Shown here: positions 1 to 32,683 of the stretch, one piece after another | Layout of the letters: each line of letters starts with the position of its first letter | Numbering within the stretch: position 1 is the first letter of the stretch | Assembly (NCBI GenBank): GCA_026394075.1 | Contig: JAPKYX010000296.1 | Location: 1 to 32,683 of the forward strand | Direction of reading: 5' to 3' | From: Acidobacteriota bacterium | Lineage (GTDB): Bacteria > Acidobacteriota > Terriglobia > Bryobacterales > Bryobacteraceae | DNA length: 32,683 bases | Translations under genes and position numbers: made by a program | The notes under the pieces: generated by a model | Told to the model about the DNA's origin: nothing | Databases searched by the model: none | What the model saw: only the letters and a program-made list of their open reading frames with translations

Positions 1-1287
1 CGCCCGCTGCACCAGTGGGTGCGCGGGCATGTCTTCCAGCAGCACGGCCAGCGCGAGGTAGCGCTGCCGCGCCTGGGCCGAAAGCCCATCCACGCTGACT
101 TGGAGGGCCTTCAGCAGGCCCGCATGGGGATATCCGCCTAACTGGAAGCCAATTCTTTCGAGGTCAGCACTTTTCAGCAGCTTCAGCACATGGGCCCAAT
201 AGGCCTGCGGCTTGCCGCGCAGCATCGCGCCGATCATGCTAACGGCCAGCGCCAACCGGCCACATTCGCCCACCAGTCCCGCCGCTTCCGAGGGCAGCGG
301 CGCGTCGCCCAGGCCGGAAGAGCGGGCCAGCAGCGCGCGAGATTCCTCCAGCGTCAGCAGACCCGCTTCATGCAGCGTGGCCTGGGTGGCGTTCGCGATG
401 TCGCCGTCACGGGTGGTGAACAACAGCCGCGATCGCGGTGATTCCGCCAGAAAGGGCTCAATGTCCTGGACCCGCCAAACGTCGTCGACAATCACCAGCG
501 CGGCCCGGTCCCGGAGGGTGGTGCGGTAGCAGTTGGTGCAGTGGAGCTCCGATTCATTGGCCCCGGGCTCATCGCCCAGCGCCAGCCGAATTTGCTGCAT
601 GCGGTTGAGCAGGCTGTGCGCAGGGTCCTGTCCGACGGTGACCCAAACGACGCCGTCGGGGTAAGCCTCCTGAATCACTGGGTCCCGGCTTAAGGCTTGG
701 GCGAGGATTGTTTTGCCAATGCCGCCCATGCCTTTCAGCGCCGTCAAGGCGACGCTGGGTCCCGGTTCATCGGCCAGCACGGCGGCGCGAAGGCGGGCGA
801 GTTCATCGTGGCGGACGATGTAGTTGCGGGGCAGCGGCGGGGCCGTCACATGCGTGGTGCGGAAGCGCTGCGGCAGCACGGCGGAGTCGATGGTGCCGCC
901 CAGTTCTTCCAGCAGGGCTTGCAGGCGTTGGGGGTAGTGGTGGTCGCCCGTGAAGTCCCGGTAGTTTTTGGTTTCGAGATGCAGCGGCCGGTCGGCCTGG
1001 GGTTCGCCCAACAGAGGAATGACGGACTTGCCCAGCCGCAAGCTCCGCAACTGCTCCGCGCGGCAGATGTCTGATTCGTAGGAGCCGCGCGTGAGGATGG
1101 CCAGCAGGACACCCGAGCGGTCGATGGCTTGTTCGATCTCAACGGTCCAACTGGCGCCGCCGCGGAGACGCTGCACGTCCAGCCAGGCGTCGAAGCCGGC
1201 GGCTTCCAGGTCACGCTGGAGGCGCTGCGCCAGCGCCGCGCCATCGCGGCGGGCGTAAGAGATAAAGATGCGGGGCTTATCCGGCAT
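1..1287 (-). CDS. TIR-NB-ARC (STAND) protein, C-terminus beyond window
   Basis: This reading frame is open from an ATG at 1287 to the first base of the window, giving 429 residues with no stop; the C-terminus lies outside. Residues about 6-95 look like a bacterial TIR_2 domain: IFISYARRDG near the start, W47 followed by an IE pair, and E78 in SDICRAEQL as the likely catalytic-glutamate position. Residues about 155-360 form an NB-ARC ATPase: Walker A GMGGIGKT (186-193), Walker B LVIVDDVW (264-271), a sensor segment LLFTTRD (288-294) and CGRLALAV (342-349) at the GLPL-motif position. In such STAND proteins the missing C-terminus usually holds a ligand-sensing repeat domain (TPR, WD40 or similar). 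Known relatives act in signalling or in anti-phage NAD+ depletion. A defence role here is inference only; no defence partner lies on the visible side. No clear Shine-Dalgarno sequence precedes the ATG. Confidence 0.85.
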   Translation of the reverse strand, partial: MPDKPRIFISYARRDGAALAQRLQRDLEAAGFDAWLDVQRLRGGASWTVEIEQAIDRSGVLLAILTRGSYESDICRAEQLRSLRLGKSVIPLLGEPQADRPLHLETKNYRDFTGDHHYPQRLQALLEELGGTIDSAVLPQRFRTTHVTAPPLPRNYIVRHDELARLRAAVLADEPGPSVALTALKGMGGIGKTILAQALSRDPVIQEAYPDGVVWVTVGQDPAHSLLNRMQQIRLALGDEPGANESELHCTNCYRTTLRDRAALVIVDDVWRVQDIEPFLAESPRSRLLFTTRDGDIANATQATLHEAGLLTLEESRALLARSSGLGDAPLPSEAAGLVGECGRLALAVSMIGAMLRGKPQAYWAHVLKLLKSADLERIGFQLGGYPHAGLLKALQVSVDGLSAQARQRYLALAVLLEDMPAHPLVQRA

Positions 1288-1412: not shown

Positions 1413-2333
1413 CTAGGCCTGGGCCTGCTTCAAGACCGCTTCCGACTTGGCCTTGATCTCTTTGGCCAACGTGAACGGATCAGCTTGCTGGAACTTGGGC
1501 AGGAATAGCTCGACGGAGATGGGTCAGGCATAGCCTTTGTCGACTAGCTTGCGGGCATAGCCTTTGTCTACTAGCTTGCGGAGGATGCGGGGCAGCGGGG
1601 CGACGCCGTCACCGGCGATGACGCGGGACTGTTGGTCCAGCAGTTCACGCGGCAAGTCCTGCGTGTCGTTCAAGTGGGCGTGCACGATCTCGCCGGGCCG
1701 GATCTGGTCCAGGTCCTCGAACTTACTGGGGCCGGACCAGAAGTGGTAGCAGTCGAACAGGACGCCAAAGCTGGGGTGCGCGGCGGCCCGGCACAGCCGC
1801 AGGGCGGTCGGCAGCGAGGCCATGTAGGTTGAGTTCCGCACGAACTCGGCCCCCACCTTCAACCCGAACTGTCGCGCCACCTCCGCCACTTGCCGGATGT
1901 TGTCGACGCCGCGGGCGTAGTCGTCCACGGTGAATTTGGCGCTGGTGGCGCAGGGTGAATAGACCACGGGCGCGCCCAGCTCGACAAACTGCGCACAGCG
2001 TTTCTTGAAGGCTTCGAGGTTCTCGGCGAACTTGGGGTTCGGCTCCCACAGGCCGGTGGTGCCGATGGCACCGGAGACGACGATGAGGCCGTTGTCGGTC
2101 AGCACCCGTTTGGCGCTGGCCATCGATTCGGTTTTGAGATACTCATCCAGCAGATTGGCGGCGGGCTCGACGAAGCGGATGCCCGCCTTGGCCCAACCTT
2201 CCAAAGATCGCTGGTAACCCGCGCCTGCGGACGTGTATTGGTGGAGACTGAGATTCATTTTGCCCGTTGCTGCCGTTGCGCCGCCCGAGGCCAGCGCCAA
2301 CGGGGTCAACAAGGCGGCGCGGCGGGTCAGCAT
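1413..2333 (-). pseudogene. Secreted sugar phosphate isomerase/epimerase-like TIM barrel with in-frame stop
   Basis: The frame encodes a xylose-isomerase-like TIM-barrel protein (AP endonuclease 2 superfamily). A Tat-like signal is seen at the start (TRRAALLTPLALASG). Probable metal-site residues are E163 (VGAEF), D194 (LFDCYHF) and H220 (VHAHLND). Translation stops at TGA 1524-1526 after 269 residues. The same frame then stays open for 36 more codons, starting PISVELFLPKF and ending at TAG 1413-1415, which is the expected C-terminal beta strand and helix of the family. The simplest reading is one GGA (Gly) to TGA change. The lost SVELF segment would carry the fourth metal-ligand glutamate. 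Immediately before the stop the nonapeptide RKLVDKGYA is present twice, from a 27-bp tandem duplication. The gene lies 39 bp after the HtrA-like gene on the same strand. Sequencing error or a conditionally read-through stop cannot be excluded from sequence alone. Confidence 0.75.
1527..1580. repeat. 27-bp tandem duplication inside TIM-barrel gene
   Basis: Two adjacent 27-bp copies, 1527-1553 and 1554-1580, differ at one base (cgac versus ctac). On the minus strand each encodes RKLVDKGYA, so the reading frame is kept. The premature TGA follows the last copy directly. Replication slippage is the likely origin. Confidence 0.95.
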
Positions 2334-2372: not shown

Positions 2373-3551
2373 TTAGAGCCGGTCTTCAGCCGGTGCCGCG
2401 CCCAAGGTGACTTTGAGCGACACGTTGCGCCCGCCGCGCGAGAGCGTCACTTCCAACTGATCGCCCGCACGCTTCTTGGACAACGTCCGGCTGATGGCGT
2501 CCAGTCGGTCCACTGGTTTGCCGTCCAAGGCCACGATCAAATCACCACCGACGCCGATTTCGGCATTGCCGATGATGGCCAGCTCACGTGGTCCGCGGAT
2601 GCCCGCCGCTTCCGCCGCCGAGCCGCGCGTCACGCCCTGCACCAACAGGCCTCCCTGCTGCGGCAAACCCAGCGCCTCCGCCAGTTCGCCCACCACATAG
2701 ACCACACTGACGCCCAGGCGCGGCGGCGAGTACTTGCGACCCGCCTGATAATCGTCCAGCATCGTCTTGGCCTTATTGATCGGCATCGCAAAGCCAATGC
2801 CAGTGGTCCCCATGCCCTGCGGACCGGCGAGAATCGCCGTGTTCACACCGACGACGTTGCCCTGGCTGTCGAGCAGCGGACCGCCGGAGTTGCCCTGGTT
2901 AATCGAGGCGTCGGTCTGCAGCAGGCCTTCCAGTTCGCGTCCGCGCTCGTCCTGAATCGTGCGGCCCATGCTGGAGATGACGCCCGTGGTCAGCGTGCCG
3001 TCGAGACCAAACGGATTGCCGATGGCCAGCACTTTCTGGCCCACCTGGATGGCATCGGAATCGCCCATCTTGAGGTAGCTGAACTTGCCGCGCGGTTCGA
3101 TCTTGATCAAGGCCAGATCGTTTAGCGGGTCCAGACCGAGAACGGAGGCGGTGTACGTGCTCTTGTCCGCGAGAGTGACCGTCAACTTCTTGCCGACACC
3201 TTGCCCGCCGCCAGTAATGACGTGGTTGTTGGTGAGGATGTGGCCTTTGTCGTCGATGAAGAAGCCGGACCCCGTGCCGGTGCGCGGCACCAGTTCCATG
3301 AACCAGTTGCGCTGGTAGACGGTGCTGGTGATGTTCACCGTGGCCGGATGGGCCCGTTTGTAGATGTCGATGCTGTTGACTTCGTCCGAGCTTAAGCCGG
3401 CTGAGCGGGCCACTTCCGGTGCGCTCCAGATCGGCAATCCGGTGCTGGTACGCGATGCAAACAGGGCGCGCCAGTCCCCCCGGGCCACAGACGTGGCGTA
3501 ATAGAAGCCGCCGGCCAATAGCGCCGCGATGATGAAAATTCTCGCCTTCAT
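2373..3551 (-). CDS. HtrA/DegP-like S1C serine protease with PDZ domain
   Basis: A 392-residue envelope protease of the trypsin-like S1C (HtrA/Deg) family, which degrades or refolds damaged periplasmic proteins. Residues 4-20 form a hydrophobic N-terminal segment that could be a signal peptide or a membrane anchor. The catalytic triad is readable: H110 in LTNNHV, D145 in DPLNDLALIK and S222 in INQGNSGGPLL. Residues about 275-385 form one PDZ domain, with an LGV start and GDLIVALDGKPV. Length and single PDZ resemble anchored DegS-type or short HtrA proteins rather than two-PDZ DegP. Its ATG overlaps the TGA of coaE by 4 bp (ATGA), which suggests translational coupling. The broken TIM-barrel gene follows 39 bp downstream. 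Confidence 0.93.
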   Translation of the reverse strand: MKARIFIIAALLAGGFYYATSVARGDWRALFASRTSTGLPIWSAPEVARSAGLSSDEVNSIDIYKRAHPATVNITSTVYQRNWFMELVPRTGTGSGFFIDDKGHILTNNHVITGGGQGVGKKLTVTLADKSTYTASVLGLDPLNDLALIKIEPRGKFSYLKMGDSDAIQVGQKVLAIGNPFGLDGTLTTGVISSMGRTIQDERGRELEGLLQTDASINQGNSGGPLLDSQGNVVGVNTAILAGPQGMGTTGIGFAMPINKAKTMLDDYQAGRKYSPPRLGVSVVYVVGELAEALGLPQQGGLLVQGVTRGSAAEAAGIRGPRELAIIGNAEIGVGGDLIVALDGKPVDRLDAISRTLSKKRAGDQLEVTLSRGGRNVSLKVTLGAAPAEDRL

Positions 3552-9498: not shown

Positions 9499-11136
9499 TT
9501 ACGTGTAGATGCCGGGCGCTTCGTGGCCCAACGCCTGCACGTATTCAACGTAGCTGCCGGGGTAGAGGCGCGGGCTCTTGTCCGTGCCCGTTTCGCCGCC
9601 CAGCTCCAGCACCCGTGAGCCGAGTCCGCGCAGGAAGACGCGGTCGTGCGAGACGAAGATCATCGTGCCTTCAAAGTCCTTCAACGCTTCCACCAGCATC
9701 TCTTTGGTAGCCAGATCGAGGTGGTTGGTGGGCTCGTCGAGCACCAGGAAGTTCGGCGGGTCGTAGAGCATGCGGGCCATCGCCAAACGCGACTTTTCGC
9801 CGCCCGACAGCATCGAGATCTTCTTCTCGACGTCGTCACCGGAAAACTGGAACGCCCCGGCCAGGCTGCGCAGGCTGCCCAGTCCGTCGCGCGGGAAGTC
9901 CTTCTGCAGTTGGTCGATGACGGTGAGATCGGAATCCAGGATGTCGAGCGATTGCTGCGCAAAGTAGCCCATCCGCAGGCTGGCCCCCAGCCGGATACCG
10001 CCCGCGTCCGGCGTTAAAGTACCGGCAATCATTTTCAGCAGGGTGCTCTTCCCCGCCCCGTTTTTGCCCATCACCGCCCAGCGCTCGCCCCGGCGGATGG
10101 TCATTGAGAAATCGTCGTAGATCGACCGTTCACCGTAGCTCTTGCATACGCCTTCCACCATCGCCACCTGATCGCCAGACCGGGCGGGGACGCGGAACTC
10201 AAACTTCACCACCTGCCGCTTTTTGGGCAGTTCGATCTTCTCGATTTTGTCGAGCGACTTGATGCGGCTCTGCACTTGAGCGGCCTTGGCGGCGTGCGTC
10301 TTGAAGCGCTCAATGAACCGCTGCTCCTTGGCGAGCATGGCCTGCTGGCGCGCAAAGGCGGCCTGCTGGTTGGCTTCGCGGATGGCGCGCTCCCGCTCGT
10401 AGAAGTCGTAGTTGCCGGAATAGCCGATGATTTCGCCGCCGTCGATTTCGACGATCTTGTTGACGATGCGGTTCATGAACTCGCGGTCGTGCGAGGTCAT
10501 CAGCAGCGTGCTTTGCAGCGACTTGAGGAACTGCTCCAGCCAGATGATCGATTCCAGGTCGAGGTGGTTGGTCGGTTCGTCCATCAGCAGCACATCGGGC
10601 CGTCCAAGAAGTACGCGGGCCAAGGCCACACGCATCTTCCAGCCGCCGGAAAGCGCGCCGACATCGCCATCGATCTGCACGTCGGGGAAGCCCAGTCCGT
10701 GCAGCACTTCGCGGGCCTGAGCTTCCAGCGTGTAGCCGCCCAAATGCTCATACTCCTGCTGCACTTCGCCAAAGCGCGCCAGTGTCTCGTCCATCTGGTC
10801 GGCCTTGTCGGGGTCTTCCATGTCCCGCAGCAGGCTTTCGAGTTCGTGGTGAAGGTCGCCCACACGGCCGCTGCCCGCGATGGCTTCATCCAGCACGGAA
10901 CGGCCCTGCATTTCTTCAACGTCCTGCCGGAAGTAGCCGATGGTCAGCTTCTTGGGCACGGTGACGTCGCCGTCGTCGGCGGACTCCTCACCTGTGATCA
11001 GACGGAACAGCGTGGTCTTGCCCGCGCCGTTGGGGCCCACCAGCCCCACCTTCTCGCCCGGGTTCAGCTGGAACGAGGCTTCGACAAAGATCAGCTGCTT
11101 GCCGTATTGTTTATTGATATTGGAGAACGCAATCAT
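9499..11136 (-). CDS. ABC-F family ribosome-associated ATPase
   Basis: A 545-residue protein with two fused ABC ATPase domains and no membrane segments, as in the ABC-F family (EttA, Uup, YbiT, resistance proteins), which act on the ribosome. Domain 1 has Walker A GPNGAGKT (about 34-41), signature LSGGWKMRVALA (about 161) and Walker B VLLMDEPTNHLD. Domain 2 has Walker A GKNGAGKS (about 357), signature LSGGEKSRLAMA and Walker B FLVLDEPTNHLD. Between them (about 242-310) is the basic, helical P-site tRNA-interaction linker (YERERAIREANQQAAFARQQ). I start at ATG 11134-11136 (MIAFSNINKQYG); the 57 codons open upstream lack similarity and overlap the divergent promoter region. The C-terminus is short, with no Uup-type coiled coil. 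It looks closest to the YbiT/YdiF group. Confidence 0.93.
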   Translation of the reverse strand: MIAFSNINKQYGKQLIFVEASFQLNPGEKVGLVGPNGAGKTTLFRLITGEESADDGDVTVPKKLTIGYFRQDVEEMQGRSVLDEAIAGSGRVGDLHHELESLLRDMEDPDKADQMDETLARFGEVQQEYEHLGGYTLEAQAREVLHGLGFPDVQIDGDVGALSGGWKMRVALARVLLGRPDVLLMDEPTNHLDLESIIWLEQFLKSLQSTLLMTSHDREFMNRIVNKIVEIDGGEIIGYSGNYDFYERERAIREANQQAAFARQQAMLAKEQRFIERFKTHAAKAAQVQSRIKSLDKIEKIELPKKRQVVKFEFRVPARSGDQVAMVEGVCKSYGERSIYDDFSMTIRRGERWAVMGKNGAGKSTLLKMIAGTLTPDAGGIRLGASLRMGYFAQQSLDILDSDLTVIDQLQKDFPRDGLGSLRSLAGAFQFSGDDVEKKISMLSGGEKSRLAMARMLYDPPNFLVLDEPTNHLDLATKEMLVEALKDFEGTMIFVSHDRVFLRGLGSRVLELGGETGTDKSPRLYPGSYVEYVQALGHEAPGIYT

Positions 11137-11326
11137 CCGGTTCTCCCAAGCTAGCAGACGGGCCTGGAGCGCGGCCGGACCGTGGGCACGCAACGAGTTA
11201 TCCTGGCGCGCGCCGCCCCGAGCCGATGAAAGGCTGGTGAGCAATTTCGCCCGGAGCCTATGGCGACTTTTTGGTAAACTCTCTTCAAGAGATAGCAGTT
11301 CCGGCATTCAACTTGACGGGGGACGA

Positions 11327-25055: not shown

Positions 25056-25169
25056 GCGGCGCCGCCTACCCGAGCCCTATTGGCCGCGTCCCGCGCCACT
25101 CTGCCCCACTCTGCCCCCCGCTGACCACAATCCGGCTTCGGCCACGGCAACTTCAGCCGAGTATGGACC

Positions 25170-26588
25170 ATGGTCTGCGCTGTCATCGCTCTTCTGGCCC
25201 AACTGAACGCCGTCGATCGCCTGATCACCGAGGGCAACCGTCTGCAGTCGGACCAGCTGTTTCCGGAAGCGGACAGCGTCTACGGCGAAGCTATCCGCAA
25301 AGCCCAGGCATGGGGCAGTGAGACCCATTTTGTGGCTCTGGCCGCCAACAACCGAGGCGCGGTGCGTTACCGTGCGGGACAGTATGCCGACGCGTTGACC
25401 GACTATCAGAATGCGCACCGGATCTGGTTGCAGTTGGGGAGGGCGGGCGATGCCGCCAAAGCGGCTACGAACCTGGCGGAGCTCTATCATGCCCGGGGCG
25501 ACGATGCTGCCGCCTTGCGGTGGTCGGAACTGGCGCTCACCACCGGTGACACCTCCGTGGCGGCACTCACCATCCATGGCAACACGCTGCGTAGCGTGGG
25601 GCGGCTGCCGGAATCGCTGAAGGTACTGAATGCAGCGGTGGCGCGTGAATCAGGGGGACGCAACAAGCTGCTGAGTTTGCCGCTGGCCTACGCCCTGTTG
25701 GGCCGAGCCCAAACGCAGCTGTCGCTGGGACTGCTGGATGAGGCGGACCAGTCCGCGACCTGGGCCAAGGAGATCCTGGTTACGTTTCGCGGGCCGGATA
25801 GTCTCGCCGTCAGTCGTGTCCTGCTTCAGCAGGCACATATCGCCCGCCTCCGGGGCGATGCGAACCAAGCGGAGCGATGGTTGCGGGAGGTGCTGCGGGT
25901 TCAGCAACAGGGCTTGCCCGACGGGCATCCCCAGATGGCCCCGACCATGGTGGAGCTGGCCGAACTGCTGGCCGCCCGGCAGCGCTTTGCCGAGGCTGAG
26001 AAACTGGCGCAGCGGGCGGCGGTGCTGGTTCGCCAAGGATTGGGCGAGTCGCACCCGGACTATGCCGGCTTGCTTCTCTCCATGGCCGATCTCTACCGTG
26101 GCCAACGGAAGTTTGACGACGCCGAACGCTACTACCGCGACGCCATTACCCACGCCCGGACGGCGGGTATTGAGACGCAGGCCCGCTTTGCCAGCTATCT
26201 AAACAACTACGCGGCGCTGCTGGTGGATCAAGACCGCTTCTCCGAAGCGGAGCCGCTGTTCCGGCAAGCCTTGGCCCACCGGGAGCGCTTCCTTGGCGCG
26301 GCGCATTTCCAGAATGCGGAACTGCTGTTTAACCTGGCGGTGGTCACGATGGCCGGACGCCGTTGGACTGAAGCCGAGGCGTTGGTGGAACGCTCGCTGG
26401 CACTCAAGCAACAGGTGGTGGGGAATGAGCATGCCAGCTTGACCCCTTCGCTGAAGCTCTACGGGCAACTGCTGCTCAGGAACGGAAAGAAGAAGCGGGC
26501 CCAGGACGTGGCCCGCCTGTACGCAAAGATCGAAGCCGGGCAACCCGGCCGGGCGGTCAACTGGCAGTCGTTACGCTCCTTCCGCTGA
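25170..26588 (+). CDS. TPR-repeat protein
   Basis: A 472-residue protein made almost wholly of tetratricopeptide repeats, likely a helical protein-binding scaffold. Typical TPR segments include NNRGAVRYRAGQYADALTDY, TNLAELYHARGDDAAALRWS, VELAELLAARQRFAEAEKLA, LSMADLYRGQRKFDDAERYY and LNNYAALLVDQDRFSEAEPL. The later repeats have the longer 42-residue kinesin-light-chain-like spacing (GESHPDY, GNEHASL). The N-terminus (MVCAVIALLAQLNAVDR) is short and hydrophobic, and could be a weak signal peptide. It follows the ADOP gene by 114 bp without a visible terminator between them, so co-transcription is possible. No catalytic domain is seen. Confidence 0.85.
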   Translation: MVCAVIALLAQLNAVDRLITEGNRLQSDQLFPEADSVYGEAIRKAQAWGSETHFVALAANNRGAVRYRAGQYADALTDYQNAHRIWLQLGRAGDAAKAATNLAELYHARGDDAAALRWSELALTTGDTSVAALTIHGNTLRSVGRLPESLKVLNAAVARESGGRNKLLSLPLAYALLGRAQTQLSLGLLDEADQSATWAKEILVTFRGPDSLAVSRVLLQQAHIARLRGDANQAERWLREVLRVQQQGLPDGHPQMAPTMVELAELLAARQRFAEAEKLAQRAAVLVRQGLGESHPDYAGLLLSMADLYRGQRKFDDAERYYRDAITHARTAGIETQARFASYLNNYAALLVDQDRFSEAEPLFRQALAHRERFLGAAHFQNAELLFNLAVVTMAGRRWTEAEALVERSLALKQQVVGNEHASLTPSLKLYGQLLLRNGKKKRAQDVARLYAKIEAGQPGRAVNWQSLRSFR

Positions 26589-26610
26589 ACAGTCGGACCC
26601 AGAAAACAGA

Positions 26611-26650
26611 AACCGGCCCGGGGGTAGGAGGCGCCCCGGGCCGGTTTTTT
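26611..26650 (+). terminator. Rho-independent terminator after TPR gene
   Basis: A perfect 13-bp inverted repeat (26611-26623 with 26634-26646), GC-rich with a 10-nt loop, is followed by six T. It starts 22 bp after the TPR stop. An A-rich stretch before the first arm suggests some activity for the opposite-strand PEP-CTERM transcript as well. Confidence 0.93.
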
Positions 26651-26692
26651 GTGCGGACAGTTGGCCAAGAGGCGGTCTCGGCTGGCCCAGGC

Positions 26693-27292
26693 TTAGCGGG
26701 CGGACCGGCGGCGGATCAGGCCCAACCCGACGAGAGCACCACCCATCAGCGCCAGTGAAGCCGGTTCCGGCGTGGCCACCGAGGAGATTCCCGGCTGGGC
26801 GATGTTGGTGAAGACGAACTGATGATCGTTGTAGTCGACATCGCCCAGGTTCGGCAGGTCTTCAAAGGCGACGTAGGTGCCGGTCGGGATGCTGCCCTTG
26901 CCAGCGAAAGCGGCGGAGTAGACGTGGTTCTTTCCATCGGAGTTCAGCGCCGGGTTTGAGTACCAGGAGGAATTCGTGTTCTGAACGTAAAGCCGGAACA
27001 CCAGGGTGTCACCCGCGTTCACGTTGCCCAACACCAGGCTGTCGCCGTAGCTCGAGGCATGGTTGGTCAGCCCCAGGATGCCAGTGGAGACACCGTTCAC
27101 CAGCAAGCCAATCTGGCTGGTATAGCCCGCGTCAGTCGCAAAAAAGTAGGCCGTGACGGTGCCCGTGTGAGCGGCGGTGAAGGTGTTCGCCGGGGCCGGT
27201 GTACCGATGTTCGCGTACGGAATCGAACCCGCCGCGGCGGGGAAAGTGAGAGCCGCAACCAGTGCGCAGGCGGAAAATAGGGTGATTTTCAT
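26693..27292 (-). CDS. PEP-CTERM sorted exported protein
   Basis: A 199-residue exported protein. A signal peptide is seen at 1-22 (MKITLFSACALVAALTFPAA, cleavage near AAG). The C-terminus is a PEP-CTERM sorting signal: VATPEP near residue 173, a hydrophobic helix (ASLALMGGALVGLGLI) and a basic tail RRRSAR. Such proteins are processed by an exosortase and often go to the surface or to extracellular polymer. The middle region contains FEDLPNLGDVDYNDHQFVF, resembling the DUF4114 pattern with Asp residues suited to calcium binding. The start ATG 27290-27292 has GGAG about 11 bases upstream. No exosortase is in the window. It diverges from the LytS-type kinase gene. Confidence 0.88.
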   Translation of the reverse strand: MKITLFSACALVAALTFPAAAGSIPYANIGTPAPANTFTAAHTGTVTAYFFATDAGYTSQIGLLVNGVSTGILGLTNHASSYGDSLVLGNVNAGDTLVFRLYVQNTNSSWYSNPALNSDGKNHVYSAAFAGKGSIPTGTYVAFEDLPNLGDVDYNDHQFVFTNIAQPGISSVATPEPASLALMGGALVGLGLIRRRSAR

Positions 27293-27428
27293 TTGAACGT
27301 GTCTCCGGGAAATCTTGTTATTGGGTCAACCGGTAGTGGCCGGGTGCCCGTGATCTCGGCCGCTGGCGGCTGGTCACAAACCAAGAATAGAGTTGAGACA
27401 GCGGCGGCTCCATGAGGCGCCGGTCCTA

Positions 27429-27462
27429 CCTGGTTCCGGTACCGGCGTTTGGCCAAACCAGG
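27429..27462. promoter_or_regulatory. Palindrome cluster between divergent PEP-CTERM and kinase genes
   Basis: Two perfect palindromes lie one base apart: CCGGTACCGG (27436-27445) and GTTTGGCCAAAC (27447-27458). Both sit inside a 7-bp outer inverted repeat, 27429-27435 with 27456-27462. A further partial copy, GTTTGGCCA, lies at 27496-27504. The position in a divergent promoter region suggests operators, but the regulator is not known. Confidence 0.35.
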
Positions 27463-27574
27463 CCCGGATGCCACCACTCACCACGGAAATCCCCAGTTTG
27501 GCCACAATCGAGGGGCGAACCACCAAGAAAACCGTCACTGTAGTTGAAGACATTTTTCGGTTCCTGGCGTTTTT

Positions 27575-28774
27575 ATGAGGCCAACGCTGGCCCCAAGTGA
27601 AAATTCAGGGGAACTGGACCGGACGCCCGAAGCGTACTTAATGGGGCAGGGTGATCTCGGATTGGACTTGAGCCGGAACTATGAAACAGCCACAATGACG
27701 CCCGGCTTGCCGCGGTGGGCCAAGATCTGGCTCCTTTGGACACTGTTTGGGCTGATCACAGCAGTCCAAACGCATTACCGCGCCTCGATGGGTGAGAACC
27801 CGTTCACCTGGTGGCAGTCGGTGAGCGCGGAGGTTAGCTTTGCCTGGATATGGGCGGTGCTGACACCCATCGTGTTGAGTTTGGCCAGCCGTTTCCCCCT
27901 CAACCGGCCGCACTGGTGGCGCAACTTGGCGCTCCATCTGACGGCCGCGGTGGCGCTGGGGATCTTGAGCAAGGCGCTGTGGGATGCGACCATGCTGCCG
28001 TTGCTGTTCCCCACCAAGCGGCTGGAAACGCTGGATGCGGTGCTGCGGATGGCGCTGCTGTCGCTGGATTACGGCGTTCTGCAATACGGCATCGTGCTAC
28101 TTTCGCAAATCGCGCGCGACTATCTGCGACGTGCCGAACGCGACCGCCTGCGGGCGACGCAACTGGAAGTGGAACTGGCGCGCGCCCAACTGCAAGCCCT
28201 GAAGATGCAGTTGCATCCGCACTTTCTGTTCAACACCCTGAACACGATCAGCGAACTGGTTCATTCTGATCCCGGTACCGCCGAACGGATGGTGATCCGG
28301 TTGAGCGAATTCCTGCGGCTGACCCTGGATCACATGGGTATTCCGGAAGTGCCGTTGATGGTGGAGATCGACTTTCTGAAGCGGTACCTGGAAATTGAGC
28401 AGATCCGGTTTGAAGAGCGCCTGAAAGTGACCTGGGAAGTGGACGCGGCGGCACTGCACGGCCGGGTACCCAATCTGGTGTTGCAGCCCATCGTTGAGAA
28501 TGCGTTGAAGCATGGGCTCTCGCAGATATCAGGCGTCGGAACGCTGTTGATCCGCGCCAAATCCGGTGGCGGCCGGCTGTTGCTGAAAGTGATCGACAAC
28601 GGCCCCGGGGTGGCCCAGAAGGGCACCATCAAGATCAAGGAAGGGGTGGGCTTGGCCAACACGCGGCGGCGGCTGGACCAGGTCTATGGCGTGGATCACA
28701 TTCTGTCGTTTTCGAATGTGGCCACGGGTGGATTTGAAGTAACAATTGAGCTGCCGCTTCGTCTAAGCCCCTAG
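27575..28774 (+). CDS. LytS/YehU-type sensor histidine kinase
   Basis: A membrane histidine kinase of the His_kinase (PF06580) type, up to 399 residues. Four hydrophobic segments are seen at about 50-66, 86-105, 118-135 and 158-178. A short coiled coil follows (RDYLRRAERDRLRATQLEVE), then the phospho-acceptor motif MQLHPHFLFNTLNTISELVH, with H216 as the likely site. The ATPase domain has the N-box LVLQPIVENALKHG and the G-box VIDNGPGV, followed by GVGLANTRRRL. The first ATG (27575) gives the longest form; ATGs at 27641 (M23) and 27695 (M41) also precede the first membrane segment, and none has a clear Shine-Dalgarno. The signal is unknown. The partner LytTR regulator follows 32 bp downstream. 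Confidence 0.92.
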   Translation: MRPTLAPSENSGELDRTPEAYLMGQGDLGLDLSRNYETATMTPGLPRWAKIWLLWTLFGLITAVQTHYRASMGENPFTWWQSVSAEVSFAWIWAVLTPIVLSLASRFPLNRPHWWRNLALHLTAAVALGILSKALWDATMLPLLFPTKRLETLDAVLRMALLSLDYGVLQYGIVLLSQIARDYLRRAERDRLRATQLEVELARAQLQALKMQLHPHFLFNTLNTISELVHSDPGTAERMVIRLSEFLRLTLDHMGIPEVPLMVEIDFLKRYLEIEQIRFEERLKVTWEVDAAALHGRVPNLVLQPIVENALKHGLSQISGVGTLLIRAKSGGGRLLLKVIDNGPGVAQKGTIKIKEGVGLANTRRRLDQVYGVDHILSFSNVATGGFEVTIELPLRLSP

Positions 28775-28806
28775 CTTGGGGCGGGGATTTTGTTTTTGGG
28801 GTGTTT

Positions 28807-29538
28807 ATGCCGATCGAAACTTTGATTGTGGATGATGAGCGGATCGCCCGCCAACGGCTGCGGCGGCTGCTGGAGACGCAGTCCGATATTGCGGTGGCCG
28901 GAGAGTGCTCCAGCGGCGCGGAAGCGGCGGCGTTTCTCGACCAGCGTCCGGTGGATCTGGTGTTCCTGGATATTCAAATGCCGGAGATGGACGGCTTTGC
29001 GTTCCTGGAATCGCAGAGCGCCACCAAGATGCCCATGGTGGTGTTTGTCACCGCCCACGACGTCCACGCCGTGCGGGCCTTTGAGGTAAGTGCGCTGGAC
29101 TATCTGTTGAAGCCCTTCGACCAGGAGCGGCTGGACCGTTGCCTGAACCGCGTGCGGAGCCATCACGACCTACAGCGCACATCCGGCAACTCGACCTCCG
29201 GCAAAGCCCGGCCCAACCGGCTGGCGGTCCGATCCTCGGGCAAAGTCTTCTTCGTGAAGATGGAAGACATTGACTGGGTGGAGGCGGCCGATAACTACGT
29301 GGTGCTCCACTTAGGGCACGAGACGCACATCCTGCGGGAAACGATGAACTCCATTCAGGAGCGGCTGAACCCGCAGAAGTTTATCCGCGTCCACCGCTCG
29401 CGCATCGTCAATGTGGAACGCATCAAGGAACTGCAGCCGTGGTTCCACGGAGAGTATCTGATCGTGCTGAACGACGGCACCCAACTCACGCTGTCACGCA
29501 GCTACCGGGAGCGGCTGATGGAGTTCATGAGCGCGTAG
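28807..29538 (+). CDS. LytTR-family response regulator
   Basis: A 243-residue response regulator. The receiver domain (1-120) has acidic residues D9, D10 and E11, phospho-acceptor D55 (VFLDIQMPEMDG), T82 and K102 (YLLKPFDQERL). The LytTR DNA-binding domain (about 140-243) shows NRLAVRSSGKVFFVKMEDID, then WVEAADNYVVLHLG, FIRVHRSRIVNVERI and LTLSRSYRERL. LytTR domains bind direct repeats near promoters of cell-wall, exopolysaccharide or secretion genes. I choose ATG 28807, with GGGG about eight bases upstream; the GTG at 28801 would add two residues. A weak GCCCC/GGGGC hairpin spans the kinase stop (28767-28782). Confidence 0.92.
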   Translation: MPIETLIVDDERIARQRLRRLLETQSDIAVAGECSSGAEAAAFLDQRPVDLVFLDIQMPEMDGFAFLESQSATKMPMVVFVTAHDVHAVRAFEVSALDYLLKPFDQERLDRCLNRVRSHHDLQRTSGNSTSGKARPNRLAVRSSGKVFFVKMEDIDWVEAADNYVVLHLGHETHILRETMNSIQERLNPQKFIRVHRSRIVNVERIKELQPWFHGEYLIVLNDGTQLTLSRSYRERLMEFMSA

Positions 29539-29554
29539 TTCGGCGAGGCCTGGT

Positions 29555-29690
29555 GTGGCGCAGGCTGTCAGCCTGCAGCGGGACTTTAGTCCCGCCAGTT
29601 CACCGCGGACACCTCAGACTATAGCCTTTTCAGCTTCCCCGCGCCCCGAGGCGGAATGAATTCCGCCTGCAGGCTGACAGCCTGCGCCAC
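29555..29690. mobile_element. MITE/REPIN-like element with 24-bp inverted termini
   Basis: The ends 29555-29578 and 29667-29690 are perfect 24-bp reverse complements. Each contains an inner near-palindrome (CAGGCTG, one base, CAGCCTG). Inside the left end is a second hairpin, 29578-29595 (GCGGGACT, TT, AGTCCCGC). Inside the right end is a third, 29649-29668 (AGGCGGAAT, GA, ATTCCGCCT). The ~50-bp centre has no coding frame. This layout fits a non-autonomous element moved by a REP-type transposase acting elsewhere. It lies between convergent genes. No second copy is seen in this window. Confidence 0.75.
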
Positions 29691-29732
29691 CATGCAACCA
29701 CTGGGGTTTCGGACGCAGTGCACAAATCTGAA

Positions 29733-30314
29733 CTAACTTCCGGCACCGGCCGTTTTCGGCCGCGCCGCCGCCAGCGCGGTCTTAACGTTGTTCTGATTGA
29801 CCAGTTGCAGGATCTTCGTATCGTAATCGGGGGCCGTGGCATACGGCGGCTGACCGTCGGCACCCTTCATGTCGGCCAGCAACTGCGGCAGGTTCTTATG
29901 TTCCTGGTAGCGCGCGAAGCGTGGCGCAAAGTACTTACCTTTCACCAGCAGGTTGGCGTAGGCGGTGAAGGCATCGGCCAGAGTAGGAAACGCCGCGAAC
30001 TGATCGACCATCATCACCTTCTGCTTGCCCCCGGTGCTGGGTTCCACGCTGCGGATCTCCTTGCCACTGGCCCGGACCCGGTCCAACTGCTGGGGAGTCA
30101 GAAACTCGGTGGTCAGCACTGGCGTCGAAGGTTGCCCCGCGCGCGCCTTGATGCCGAATGGATTGTTGCCGGGCGCTTTTTCGAGCCAGGCCGATTCGAG
30201 AATGCACTGGGCCGTGCAGAGTTCAGCGGGTACGCCGGTGGCGGCCTCGGTGGCGACGGCGGCGGCGGCAATGCGGGCCAGATTGGCGGTTCGTTGTTCC
30301 GGTGTCAGCGGCAT
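29733..30314 (-). CDS. Glucosaminidase-domain peptidoglycan hydrolase (FlgJ-like)
   Basis: A 193-residue protein with a Mannosyl-glycoprotein endo-beta-N-acetylglucosaminidase domain (PF01832), as in FlgJ and many endolysins. Seen: CTAQCILESAWLEKAPGNN with E40 as the likely catalytic acid, then NPFGIKA, the aromatic run DQFAAFPTLADAFTAYANLL, and PPYATAPDYDTKILQLVNQN. No signal peptide is present: the N-terminus MPLTPEQRTANLARIAAAAV is hydrophilic then mildly hydrophobic. It may therefore be exported by another route, act at lysis, or derive from a phage. No phage or flagellar gene is adjacent. The C-terminal tail is Ala/Lys-rich (AAARPKTAGAGS). It lies 43 bp from the repeat element. Confidence 0.85.
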   Translation of the reverse strand: MPLTPEQRTANLARIAAAAVATEAATGVPAELCTAQCILESAWLEKAPGNNPFGIKARAGQPSTPVLTTEFLTPQQLDRVRASGKEIRSVEPSTGGKQKVMMVDQFAAFPTLADAFTAYANLLVKGKYFAPRFARYQEHKNLPQLLADMKGADGQPPYATAPDYDTKILQLVNQNNVKTALAAARPKTAGAGS

Positions 30315-30371
30315 GTAAGAACTATAGTCTGCATTGCGCCGCGTGCCAACACTTTTCTGGAGACCGGTGTC

Positions 30372-31847
30372 TTACGCGGTCGCGGATCCCGGAGGTAGGC
30401 CGGCGAGATGCCGCGCCAATTCCTTCTTGGCTTCCAGGTTGGACTGCCGCGCGATCTGGATGCGTTGCGCTTGCGGGCTGCCCGCGCCGTGCATCGATTC
30501 GGTGAGATACCCCACCGCATTGCGGCCCAGCGTCATGTTCTCGATCAACCGGAAGACGCGCGCGCGGTCCTCGGCCGAGGCTCCATCGCGGCCCTGCAGG
30601 AACTTGCGCAACCGGTCGCCGGTGACGGGATTCGCAAAGTCTTTCTCGGAAGGCAGTGTCGCCACCAGGCCGCCCGCCAGGTCCTGCGCCAGCCGCCCCA
30701 GCTCATACGGGAAGCGCGTGACGTTTTGCTTGCAGACGTTGGCCAGCAGGTCATTGGGCTGATAGTTACCCGCCGCCGTGCGCTCTGATTCGTGGGAGGC
30801 GGCCATGCCGGTGCCGTAGATGGTCTCGTTGAGGTGAGTCATCTCCACCAGCTTGTCGCGGACGTGGCTGACCGCGCCCACGCCATTGAAATCCGCCGCT
30901 AGCGCCGCCGCACCAATCAGCACATCGCCCACGCCGGTCTTGCATACGTAGGAACGGCGGTGATAGGACGTGAACCGCTCCACCAGCATGGCGGCGAAGG
31001 CCGTTTCGCCATCCATGAAGATCAGTTCGTTGGGCACAAACACGTCATCGATCAGGATCATCGCTTCCTGGCCGGAATACTGCGCATTGCCCTGGTCGAT
31101 CTCGCCACCTTCGAGCGCGCGCGTATCGCAGGACTGGCGGCCATAGATGTAGGTGAGCCCCGGGTGGTCCACCGGAATCGCGGCCACCACGGCATAGTCA
31201 CGGTCAACCGGGCGGAGCCGCATGGTGGGCATCACGATCAGCCAGTGTGAGTTCAAGCAGCCAGTCTGGTGCATTTTCGCCCCACGGATGACGACACCAT
31301 CCGGGCGGCGTTCGACGATGCGGGTGAACATGTCAGGCTCGGATTGATCCGCCGGGCCTTTGCTGCGGTCGCCTTTGGGGTCGGTCATGGCGCCGCCGAT
31401 GACGTAGTTGGCTTCCTGCATGCGGATGACGAAGTCGCGGAAACGGGTGTGGTAACCCGTCCCATGCGCCAGGTCCATTTCGTGCGTCACCGAAAAGAGC
31501 GAATTGATCGCGTCCATCCCGACGCAGCGCTGGAAGCAAGTGCCGGTGAGTTGCCCCAGGCGGCGCTGCATGCGGTTTTGATCGACCACATCGGCGACAC
31601 TTTCGGTGACATGCAGGAAGCGATTGACCCGCCGGCCGGAGAGGCTGGACCAGGCGCTGGCCAATTCCGGGTTCTCCTGGGCCAGGTCAAACGTGCGGGC
31701 GACGGCGTTGATCGAAGGGCGAATGACGGGATGGTCCACCGGCTCCGCGATCCGCTCCCCCATGAAGTAGACCTCCAGGTTGCGTCCGCGGAGGCTGGCG
31801 ATGTACTCCGCGCCGCTCGAGATGGTGGTGGGCGGGGCTGCCGTCAT
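30372..31847 (-). CDS. abfD: 4-hydroxybutyryl-CoA dehydratase / vinylacetyl-CoA delta-isomerase-like protein
   Basis: A 491-residue member of the HpaB/AbfD flavoprotein family. It is much closer to AbfD, which dehydrates 4-hydroxybutyryl-CoA to crotonyl-CoA using FAD and a [4Fe-4S] cluster, than to 4-hydroxyphenylacetate hydroxylase. Cluster-ligand residues are present: C104 and C108 (CFQRCVGMDA), H296 and C302 (YHRRSYVCKTGVGD). The catalytic Y300 and E450 (TESMHGAGSPQAQR), plus GAMTDPKGDRS, GAKMHQTG and NVCKQNVTRFPYE, are also AbfD-like. H296 to C302 is six residues, while I recall seven in the Clostridium enzyme. The start ATG 31845-31847 is fixed by AAGGAG at 31855-31860, seven bases upstream. 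No CoA-transferase or 4-hydroxybutyrate dehydrogenase is adjacent, so the pathway (GABA or 4-hydroxybutyrate use) is inferred. Confidence 0.88.
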   Translation of the reverse strand: MTAAPPTTISSGAEYIASLRGRNLEVYFMGERIAEPVDHPVIRPSINAVARTFDLAQENPELASAWSSLSGRRVNRFLHVTESVADVVDQNRMQRRLGQLTGTCFQRCVGMDAINSLFSVTHEMDLAHGTGYHTRFRDFVIRMQEANYVIGGAMTDPKGDRSKGPADQSEPDMFTRIVERRPDGVVIRGAKMHQTGCLNSHWLIVMPTMRLRPVDRDYAVVAAIPVDHPGLTYIYGRQSCDTRALEGGEIDQGNAQYSGQEAMILIDDVFVPNELIFMDGETAFAAMLVERFTSYHRRSYVCKTGVGDVLIGAAALAADFNGVGAVSHVRDKLVEMTHLNETIYGTGMAASHESERTAAGNYQPNDLLANVCKQNVTRFPYELGRLAQDLAGGLVATLPSEKDFANPVTGDRLRKFLQGRDGASAEDRARVFRLIENMTLGRNAVGYLTESMHGAGSPQAQRIQIARQSNLEAKKELARHLAGLPPGSATA

Positions 31848-31907
31848 AGATTGTCTCCTTGTCGCTGGTGGGTGAATGAGCCGATTGTACAGCCCCACTA
31901 CCAGCGG

Positions 31908-32683
31908 TTATTGGACCAGTTCGCCGGCCAGCGCGGCCGGACCCGCCCGGGTGACCATCACGCGGCGGTACTCGCCCGCCAGTTCGCCGGGCGCGGCGAA
32001 GGTGATCGTCTTCAATTGCGTGGTCTTGCCCAGCCACTGGTTGGTGGCCTTGTTGAAGCCTTCCACCATCACCTCTTCGGTGCGGCCCACGTGACGGGCG
32101 TTACGGCGGATCTGGATGGCCCGTTGGTGCTCCTGGACCATCAGCAGGCGACGGGACTTTTCTTCCTCGGTGATATGGTCTTCCAGGGCCAGCGCCGGAG
32201 TATTGGGGCGCTTGGAGTACTTGAACGCGAAAATGGCGTCGTACTCAACTTCTGACAGCAGGCTGAGCGTGTCCTGCAGGTCCTGCTCGGTTTCGCCAGG
32301 GAAGCCCACAATGATGTCGGACGTGAGCGTGAGTTCGCGGCGGGTCGACTTCATCCAATCAATACGGCGTAGATACTCATCTCGCGTGTACTGCCGTTGC
32401 ATCGCCTTCAGCACCGCGGTCGAGCCGGACTGGACGGGCAGATGGACGTGGTTGCACAGCACGGGGTTCTCGTCGATGGCGTCGACAATATCCCGCACAA
32501 AATCCCGCGGGTGCGACGTCATGAAGCGCACACGGCGAATGCCGGGGACTTGGCCGACGCGGCGGAGCAGTTCGGCAAAATCTGAACCCAGGGGCCGCGA
32601 CGGGTCAGAATCCGGTGCCCGGAAGCTGTTCACGTTCTGGCCCAGCAGCTGAATTTCGGTGTAGCCAGCCGCTGATAGCTTGG
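31908..32683 (-). CDS. miaB: tRNA-2-methylthio-N6-dimethylallyladenosine synthase, N-terminus beyond window
   Basis: The C-terminal 258 residues of a methylthiotransferase of the MiaB type, which adds the ms2 group to i6A37 in tRNAs reading UNN codons. The frame runs off the right edge. Visible: YTEIQLLGQNVNSFRAP at the edge, RFMTSHPRDF, HVHLPVQSGSTAVLKAMQR, YTRDEYLRRI, LTSDIIVGFPGETEQDLQDT and YDAIFAFKYSKRPNTPA, all typical of the radical-SAM barrel of MiaB. A C-terminal TRAM domain follows (GRTEEVMVEGFNK to AGEL). The CxxxCxxC cluster motif and the UPF0004 domain must lie outside the window. The abfD-like gene starts 60 bp downstream with its own Shine-Dalgarno sequence. Confidence 0.92.
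   Translation of the reverse strand, partial: KLSAAGYTEIQLLGQNVNSFRAPDSDPSRPLGSDFAELLRRVGQVPGIRRVRFMTSHPRDFVRDIVDAIDENPVLCNHVHLPVQSGSTAVLKAMQRQYTRDEYLRRIDWMKSTRRELTLTSDIIVGFPGETEQDLQDTLSLLSEVEYDAIFAFKYSKRPNTPALALEDHITEEEKSRRLLMVQEHQRAIQIRRNARHVGRTEEVMVEGFNKATNQWLGKTTQLKTITFAAPGELAGEYRRVMVTRAGPAALAGELVQ

What the first reader, a model, noticed from the sequence alone, without database searches (positions are those of the whole stretch)
1413..2333. In-frame stop and 27-bp duplication disable a TIM-barrel gene
The frame stays open for 36 family-like codons after TGA 1524-1526, including the SVELF strand expected to hold a metal-ligand glutamate. A tandem duplication sits directly before the stop. 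This looks like a recent pseudogenisation, or else a read-through or assembly artefact.
Basis: seen in the sequence. Interest (0 to 1): 0.6.

Follow-up and report, generated by a model that had tools for sequence, protein, structure and literature searches.

The report
Freshly broken sugar-isomerase-like gene
One gene for a probable metal-dependent sugar isomerase in an environmental acidobacterium has a short internal duplication followed by a premature stop that cuts off an active-site residue, which is most likely an ordinary, recent gene loss.

Summary
On the minus strand (1413-2333) a xylose-isomerase-like TIM-barrel gene (PF01261) carries a 27-bp tandem duplication (26 of 27 bases identical) and, directly after it, an in-frame TGA (1524-1526). 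Thirty-six family-like codons follow before TAG. The closest relative found (same genus, 92% DNA identity) has neither and runs through. Of 80 homologous loci, 78 have Gly at the stop column (1 Arg, 1 unreadable), 79 keep the glutamate of SVELF, and none of the 79 readable ones has the insertion. In the family, 80 of 237 genomes hold the gene; 2 of 84 places contain a stop, the second at that protein's normal end. The lost piece holds strand 8, the last helix and a glutamate aligned with IolI E246. Silent changes dominate on both sides of the stop, so the break is young. Selenocysteine machinery exists here, but no notable hairpin follows the UGA and relatives have Gly. No reads could be inspected, so an assembly or strain-mixture error remains possible. 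Best reading: ordinary recent loss of a patchily distributed gene, beside a synteny break. Low interest.

The parts
1413..2333 (-). whole frame of the IolI-like TIM-barrel gene, interrupted by one TGA
   Evidence: the genome search reads it as one match to residues 1-294 of the relative's protein with 1 TGA inside
1524..1526 (-). in-frame TGA, at a column that is Gly in 78 of 80 homologous loci
1527..1581 (-). 27-bp tandem duplication, two copies, 26 of 27 identical, absent from the 79 readable homologous loci
1416..1523 (-). 36 codons after the stop: strand 8, glutamate of SVELF, C-terminal helix
1413..1415 (-). TAG at the end of the family frame; DNA synteny with the same-genus relative ends here
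1527..2333 (-). 269-codon truncated frame, twin-arginine-like N-terminus and PF01261 domain lacking its last part
   Evidence: twin-arginine reading recalled from the LTRRAAL stretch
2373..3551 (-). HtrA/DegP-like protease directly upstream, same strand

Best explanation
The gene encoded a metal-dependent TIM-barrel protein of the xylose-isomerase-like (AP_endonuc_2, IolI-like) family. In the lineage of this genome, after the split from its closest found relative, a 27-bp segment was duplicated in tandem (shown by comparison) and the codon right after it became TGA (shown by comparison). The truncated product would stop before the eighth strand and lack the fourth metal ligand and the closing helix, so it is very probably inactive (inferred from alignment and model). 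The break is recent (inferred): the 36 codons behind it still look like coding sequence. The gene is patchily distributed in the family, so its loss is likely tolerated (inferred).
For: Relative without repeat and without stop at 92% DNA identity. Gly at the column in 78 of 80 loci, Glu in 79 of 80, insertion in 0 of 79 readable loci. 2 of 84 places in the 80 matching family genomes hold a stop, and the other one (G046, TAG) lies at the normal C-terminal end; the two places whose match ends early, in G058 and G230, stop at contig ends. Alignment to IolI 1i60 puts E163, D194, H220 and E266 of the relative on E142, D174, H200 and E246 (that these are the IolI ligands is recalled); all four are invariant in the 6-row alignment. 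A review passage lists the corresponding Glu, Asp, His, Glu set of the related 3-epimerases among residues important for substrate binding (PMC7008614, passages). Model of the intact relative: strand 262-265 and helix 277-294 lie behind the stop column 261; best PDB match IolI 1i60, TMq 0.85. dN/dS against the relative 0.12 before and 0.09 after the stop, the latter from 6 silent and 2 replacement changes. No close paralogue in the genome (the other two matches are 28% identical). Gene found in 80 of 237 family genomes.
Against: No reads, transcripts or second assembly of this species were available. The low ratio behind the stop rests on 8 changes (one of them behind the relative's own end) and would also fit a product still made by read-through. 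Relaxed selection on the window's branch could not be shown. The loss of activity is inferred; no mutant was tested.
Confidence: 0.8

Rival explanations
1. Assembly or consensus artefact: strain mixture or a sequencing error made the repeat, the stop or both.
For: The genome is in 302 contigs with 2.19% estimated contamination, and the gene lies 1.4 kb from a contig end. Neither repeat nor stop was seen in any of the 79 readable relatives, so the only witness is this assembly.
Against: The two repeat copies differ by one base and the pair (55 bp) is shorter than ordinary short reads (recalled), so reads would span it. Over the stretch shared with the relative, 4 of 21 comparable ORFs of the relative are flagged as interrupted in the window; the other three have the stop at residue 20 of 258, at residue 3 of 118, or belong to an ORF antisense to folD, which I read as start choice or spurious ORFs.
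Confidence: 0.1
2. The truncated protein is still functional, with the duplicated stretch as a new C-terminus.
For: The frame before the stop is intact and dN/dS there is 0.12.
Against: It lacks strand 8 and the glutamate kept in 79 of 80 loci; none of the 79 readable relatives ends there. The ratio may reflect mostly the time before the break.
Confidence: 0.06
3. The UGA is read through, as selenocysteine or by leaky termination, and the full-length protein is made.
For: SelB over its cut-off and tRNA-Sec genes with anticodon UCA are in the genome. UGA followed by C is a leaky context (recalled; of the paper search only the listing was seen). The low dN/dS behind the stop would fit.
Against: No notable hairpin behind the UGA: z 0.11, 0.32, 0.67 and -0.32 for four stretches, with 113, 118, 148 and 73 of 200 shuffles folding at least as well (no local positive control). 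The column is Gly, not Cys, in 78 of 80 loci. The product would still carry a 9-residue insert seen in none of the 79 readable relatives.
Confidence: 0.04

Closest known systems
   Same: 96% protein and 92% DNA identity, same HtrA-like neighbour upstream
   Different: no repeat, no internal stop; ends two codons earlier than the window's frame; different downstream genes
IolI of Bacillus subtilis (PDB 1i60)
   Same: fold and four aligned metal-site residues in the intact relative
   Different: about 23% identity in the fold alignment; the window's truncated frame lacks the fourth residue; substrate unknown
Ordinary bacterial pseudogene by nonsense mutation (general kind, recalled)
   Same: single in-frame stop, conserved sequence behind it, intact relatives
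   Different: a short in-frame duplication sits directly before the stop

Membership tests
Xylose isomerase-like TIM barrel (PF01261, AP_endonuc_2) | profile match above the gathering score | tested here: met
   truncated frame 85.9 bits against 31.1; intact relative 102.7 bits
Xylose isomerase-like TIM barrel (PF01261, AP_endonuc_2) | complete barrel with Glu, Asp, His, Glu metal site | tested here: not met
   aligned and modelled in the intact relative; the window's frame stops before strand 8 and the last Glu, so it is filed as a remnant of the family, not a working member
Xylose isomerase-like TIM barrel (PF01261, AP_endonuc_2) | isomerase or epimerase activity | not testable with these tools
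   no assay; substrate unknown
Recent pseudogene | orthologues intact and continuing past the stop | tested here: met
Recent pseudogene | lesion present in reads of the organism | not testable with these tools
   no reads held
Recent pseudogene | relaxed selection after the lesion | tested here: inconclusive
   window branch, polarised with 8 of 80 loci: before the stop 4 replacement and 4 silent changes, after it 0 and 2; 23 changes unresolved
Selenoprotein | Sec machinery in the genome | tested here: met
   SelB, tRNA-Sec; selA and selD were not searched
Selenoprotein | stable hairpin just behind the UGA | tested here: not met
   four stretches, z from -0.32 to 0.67; no positive control from this genome
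Selenoprotein | Cys or Sec at the column in relatives | tested here: not met
   78 Gly, 1 Arg, 1 unreadable of 80

The most novel reading that the evidence does not exclude
The UGA is decoded in this bacterium, which has selenocysteine machinery, so that a full-length TIM-barrel protein with a nine-residue insert and a residue of new chemistry beside strand 8 is made.
Probability: 0.03. Interest if true: 0.5.

Novelty: new member of a known kind. Interest (0 to 1): 0.1.

Why it matters
As a pseudogene it is one more example of gene loss in a family where the gene is already patchy (80 of 237 genomes), and it warns that the 269-residue ORF would be a truncated, probably inactive enzyme. It would matter more only if the stop were read through.

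Tried and rejected
Genetic-code change: not indicated. The selB match has no stop inside. Of 21 comparable ORFs of the relative, 17 show no interruption in the window; of the 4 flagged, this gene is the only one that I read as a genuine interruption.

Frameshift: rejected, no gap other than the 27-bp one in the alignment of the gene with the closest relative.

Loss in the third genome of the genus (G002): no match to the gene at E 1e-20, but G002 also lacks a close match to the neighbouring htrA (best 41%), so the whole region may be missing from that assembly; inconclusive.

A second stop-bearing homologue (G046, TAG) was followed up: the TAG is at the natural end of that protein, not a second pseudogene. 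Two early-ending matches (G058, G230) end at contig ends.

Formate dehydrogenase as a positive control for UGA-coded selenocysteine: no match over the cut-off and no stop inside in three genomes, so there is no worked selenoprotein example from this genome and the hairpin test has no local positive control.

Literature: listings with abstract beginnings; passages of PMC7008614 and PMC7733943. No search for papers on this organism was made.

Rows dropped: only 8 of 80 loci served as outgroups; L116 is a gap at both columns because its match is out of frame and partly N, and L051 is the same sequence as the reference row, which I did not count twice. The scan kept the best 80 of 88 relatives. 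The stretch L035 (G006) was fetched and not used.

Full report
What is there. The minus-strand frame 1413-2333 begins MLTRRAALLTPLALASGG and matches PF01261, Xylose isomerase-like TIM barrel. It is interrupted by TGA at 1524-1526; 36 codons follow before TAG. Directly before the TGA lies a 27-bp tandem duplication, 1527-1581, the highest-scoring of 8 tandem arrays listed for the window; its units agree at 26 of 27 bases, and 200 simulated sequences reached at most 21. The duplication is in frame and adds the nine residues RKLVDKGYA.

Relatives. The window is contig 168 of a genome of 5.77 Mb in 302 contigs, 96.9% complete, 2.19% contaminated. The genus holds three genomes here; two have the gene. 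Over 921 aligned columns it is 92% identical, with one gap, the 27 bp, and a Gly codon at the stop position. A scan of GTDB genomes gave 80 loci (the best 80 of 88; the tool may leave out records of the window's own genome). At the stop column 78 have Gly, 1 Arg (L126) and 1 is unreadable (L116); the glutamate of SVELF is present in 79 of 80; none of the 79 readable loci has the insertion. In the family, 80 of 237 genomes have a match at E 1e-20 (the window's own included), with 84 places; two places hold a stop, the window's TGA and a TAG in G046, which is at the normal end of that protein. Two matches end early, in G058 and G230; both run into a contig end.

What the lesion removes. In the model of the intact relative (mean pLDDT 89.8) the stop column is residue 261; behind it come the strand 262-265 and the helix 277-294. 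The best PDB match is IolI 1i60 (TMq 0.85). The sequence alignment to 1i60 puts E163, D194, H220 and E266 on IolI E142, D174, H200 and E246; I recall these as the IolI metal ligands, and the structure paper was not held. [quoted passage not shown] So the truncated frame lacks strand 8, the fourth ligand and the closing helix. That it is inactive is inference.

Age. Against G001 the gene has dS 0.16 and dN 0.018; before the stop the ratio is 0.12, after it 0.09, from 6 silent and 2 replacement changes, one of these behind G001's own end. With 8 of the 80 loci as outgroups, the window branch shows 4 replacement and 4 silent changes before the stop and 0 and 2 after it, besides the stop; G001 shows 4 and 6 before, 1 and 0 after; 23 changes stay unresolved. 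Three of the window's four replacements before the stop lie behind codon 24, against none of G001's four; the numbers are too small to claim relaxed selection. The break is thus younger than most of the divergence from G001, or, less likely, the product is still made.

Is it an artefact? No reads can be inspected. Over the stretch shared with G001, 21 of 32 ORFs of G001 have a relative over at least 60% of their length in the window; 4 are flagged as interrupted. Besides this gene these are stops at residue 20 of 258 and 3 of 118, near the predicted starts, and at residue 108 of 178 of an ORF antisense to folD (the reading as start choice or spurious ORFs is mine). In the other direction 3 of 21 (of 30 ORFs) are flagged: an ORF inside the frame 9499-11307 on the other strand, and stops at residues 103 and 105 of 763 and 40 of 387, which I read as starts set too early. 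The contig is therefore not riddled with interruptions. The two copies of the repeat differ by a base, which a simple assembly stutter would not give.

Read-through. The genome has SelB over its cut-off and two tRNA genes called tRNA-Sec with anticodon UCA, so UGA can in principle be decoded. But no stretch behind the UGA folds notably better than its shuffles (z 0.11, 0.32, 0.67, -0.32), relatives have Gly rather than Cys, and a full-length product would carry an insert seen in no readable relative. I give this 4%.

Surroundings. Upstream on the same strand lie an HtrA/DegP-like protease, a dephospho-CoA kinase and FolD. The HtrA stands beside the gene in 1 of 80 loci, G001 itself, within flanks of at most 3 kb, shorter in some loci. 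DNA synteny with G001 ends at the gene's final stop: in the window a TIR and NB-ARC gene follows, in G001 other genes. The gene sits at a rearrangement border; whether that preceded its loss is unknown.

Verdict. A real, ordinary and recent loss of an IolI-like gene is most likely (0.8). Interest is low.

Noticed in passing
window 1-1287 (minus), synteny border at 1413: A TIR plus NB-ARC gene, cut by the contig end, stands where the same-genus relative has other genes; its only match in that relative is 49% identical on another contig.
   Followed up: partly
L043 1501-1594 and L044 1501-1596 (same genome as the window): Two different tRNA-Sec genes (73.9 and 64.3 bits); G001 and G002 show one at 73.9 and nothing else above 47.7 among the 150 candidates scored per genome, so the second may be acquired or a contaminant.
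   Followed up: partly
window 1413-25061 against L033 and L034: Silent divergence from the same-genus relative rises along the contig, from 0.16-0.57 in the 11 genes compared up to 14626 to 0.57-1.12 in the 8 beyond, as if the left part had recombined recently.
   Followed up: no
window 25062-32683: No DNA alignment to the fetched stretch of the relative beyond 25061, although about 6 kb of it were left; possible second synteny break.
   Followed up: no
G002 (same genus): No match to the TIM-barrel gene at E 1e-20 and only a 41% match to the neighbouring htrA; deletion or assembly gap.
   Followed up: partly
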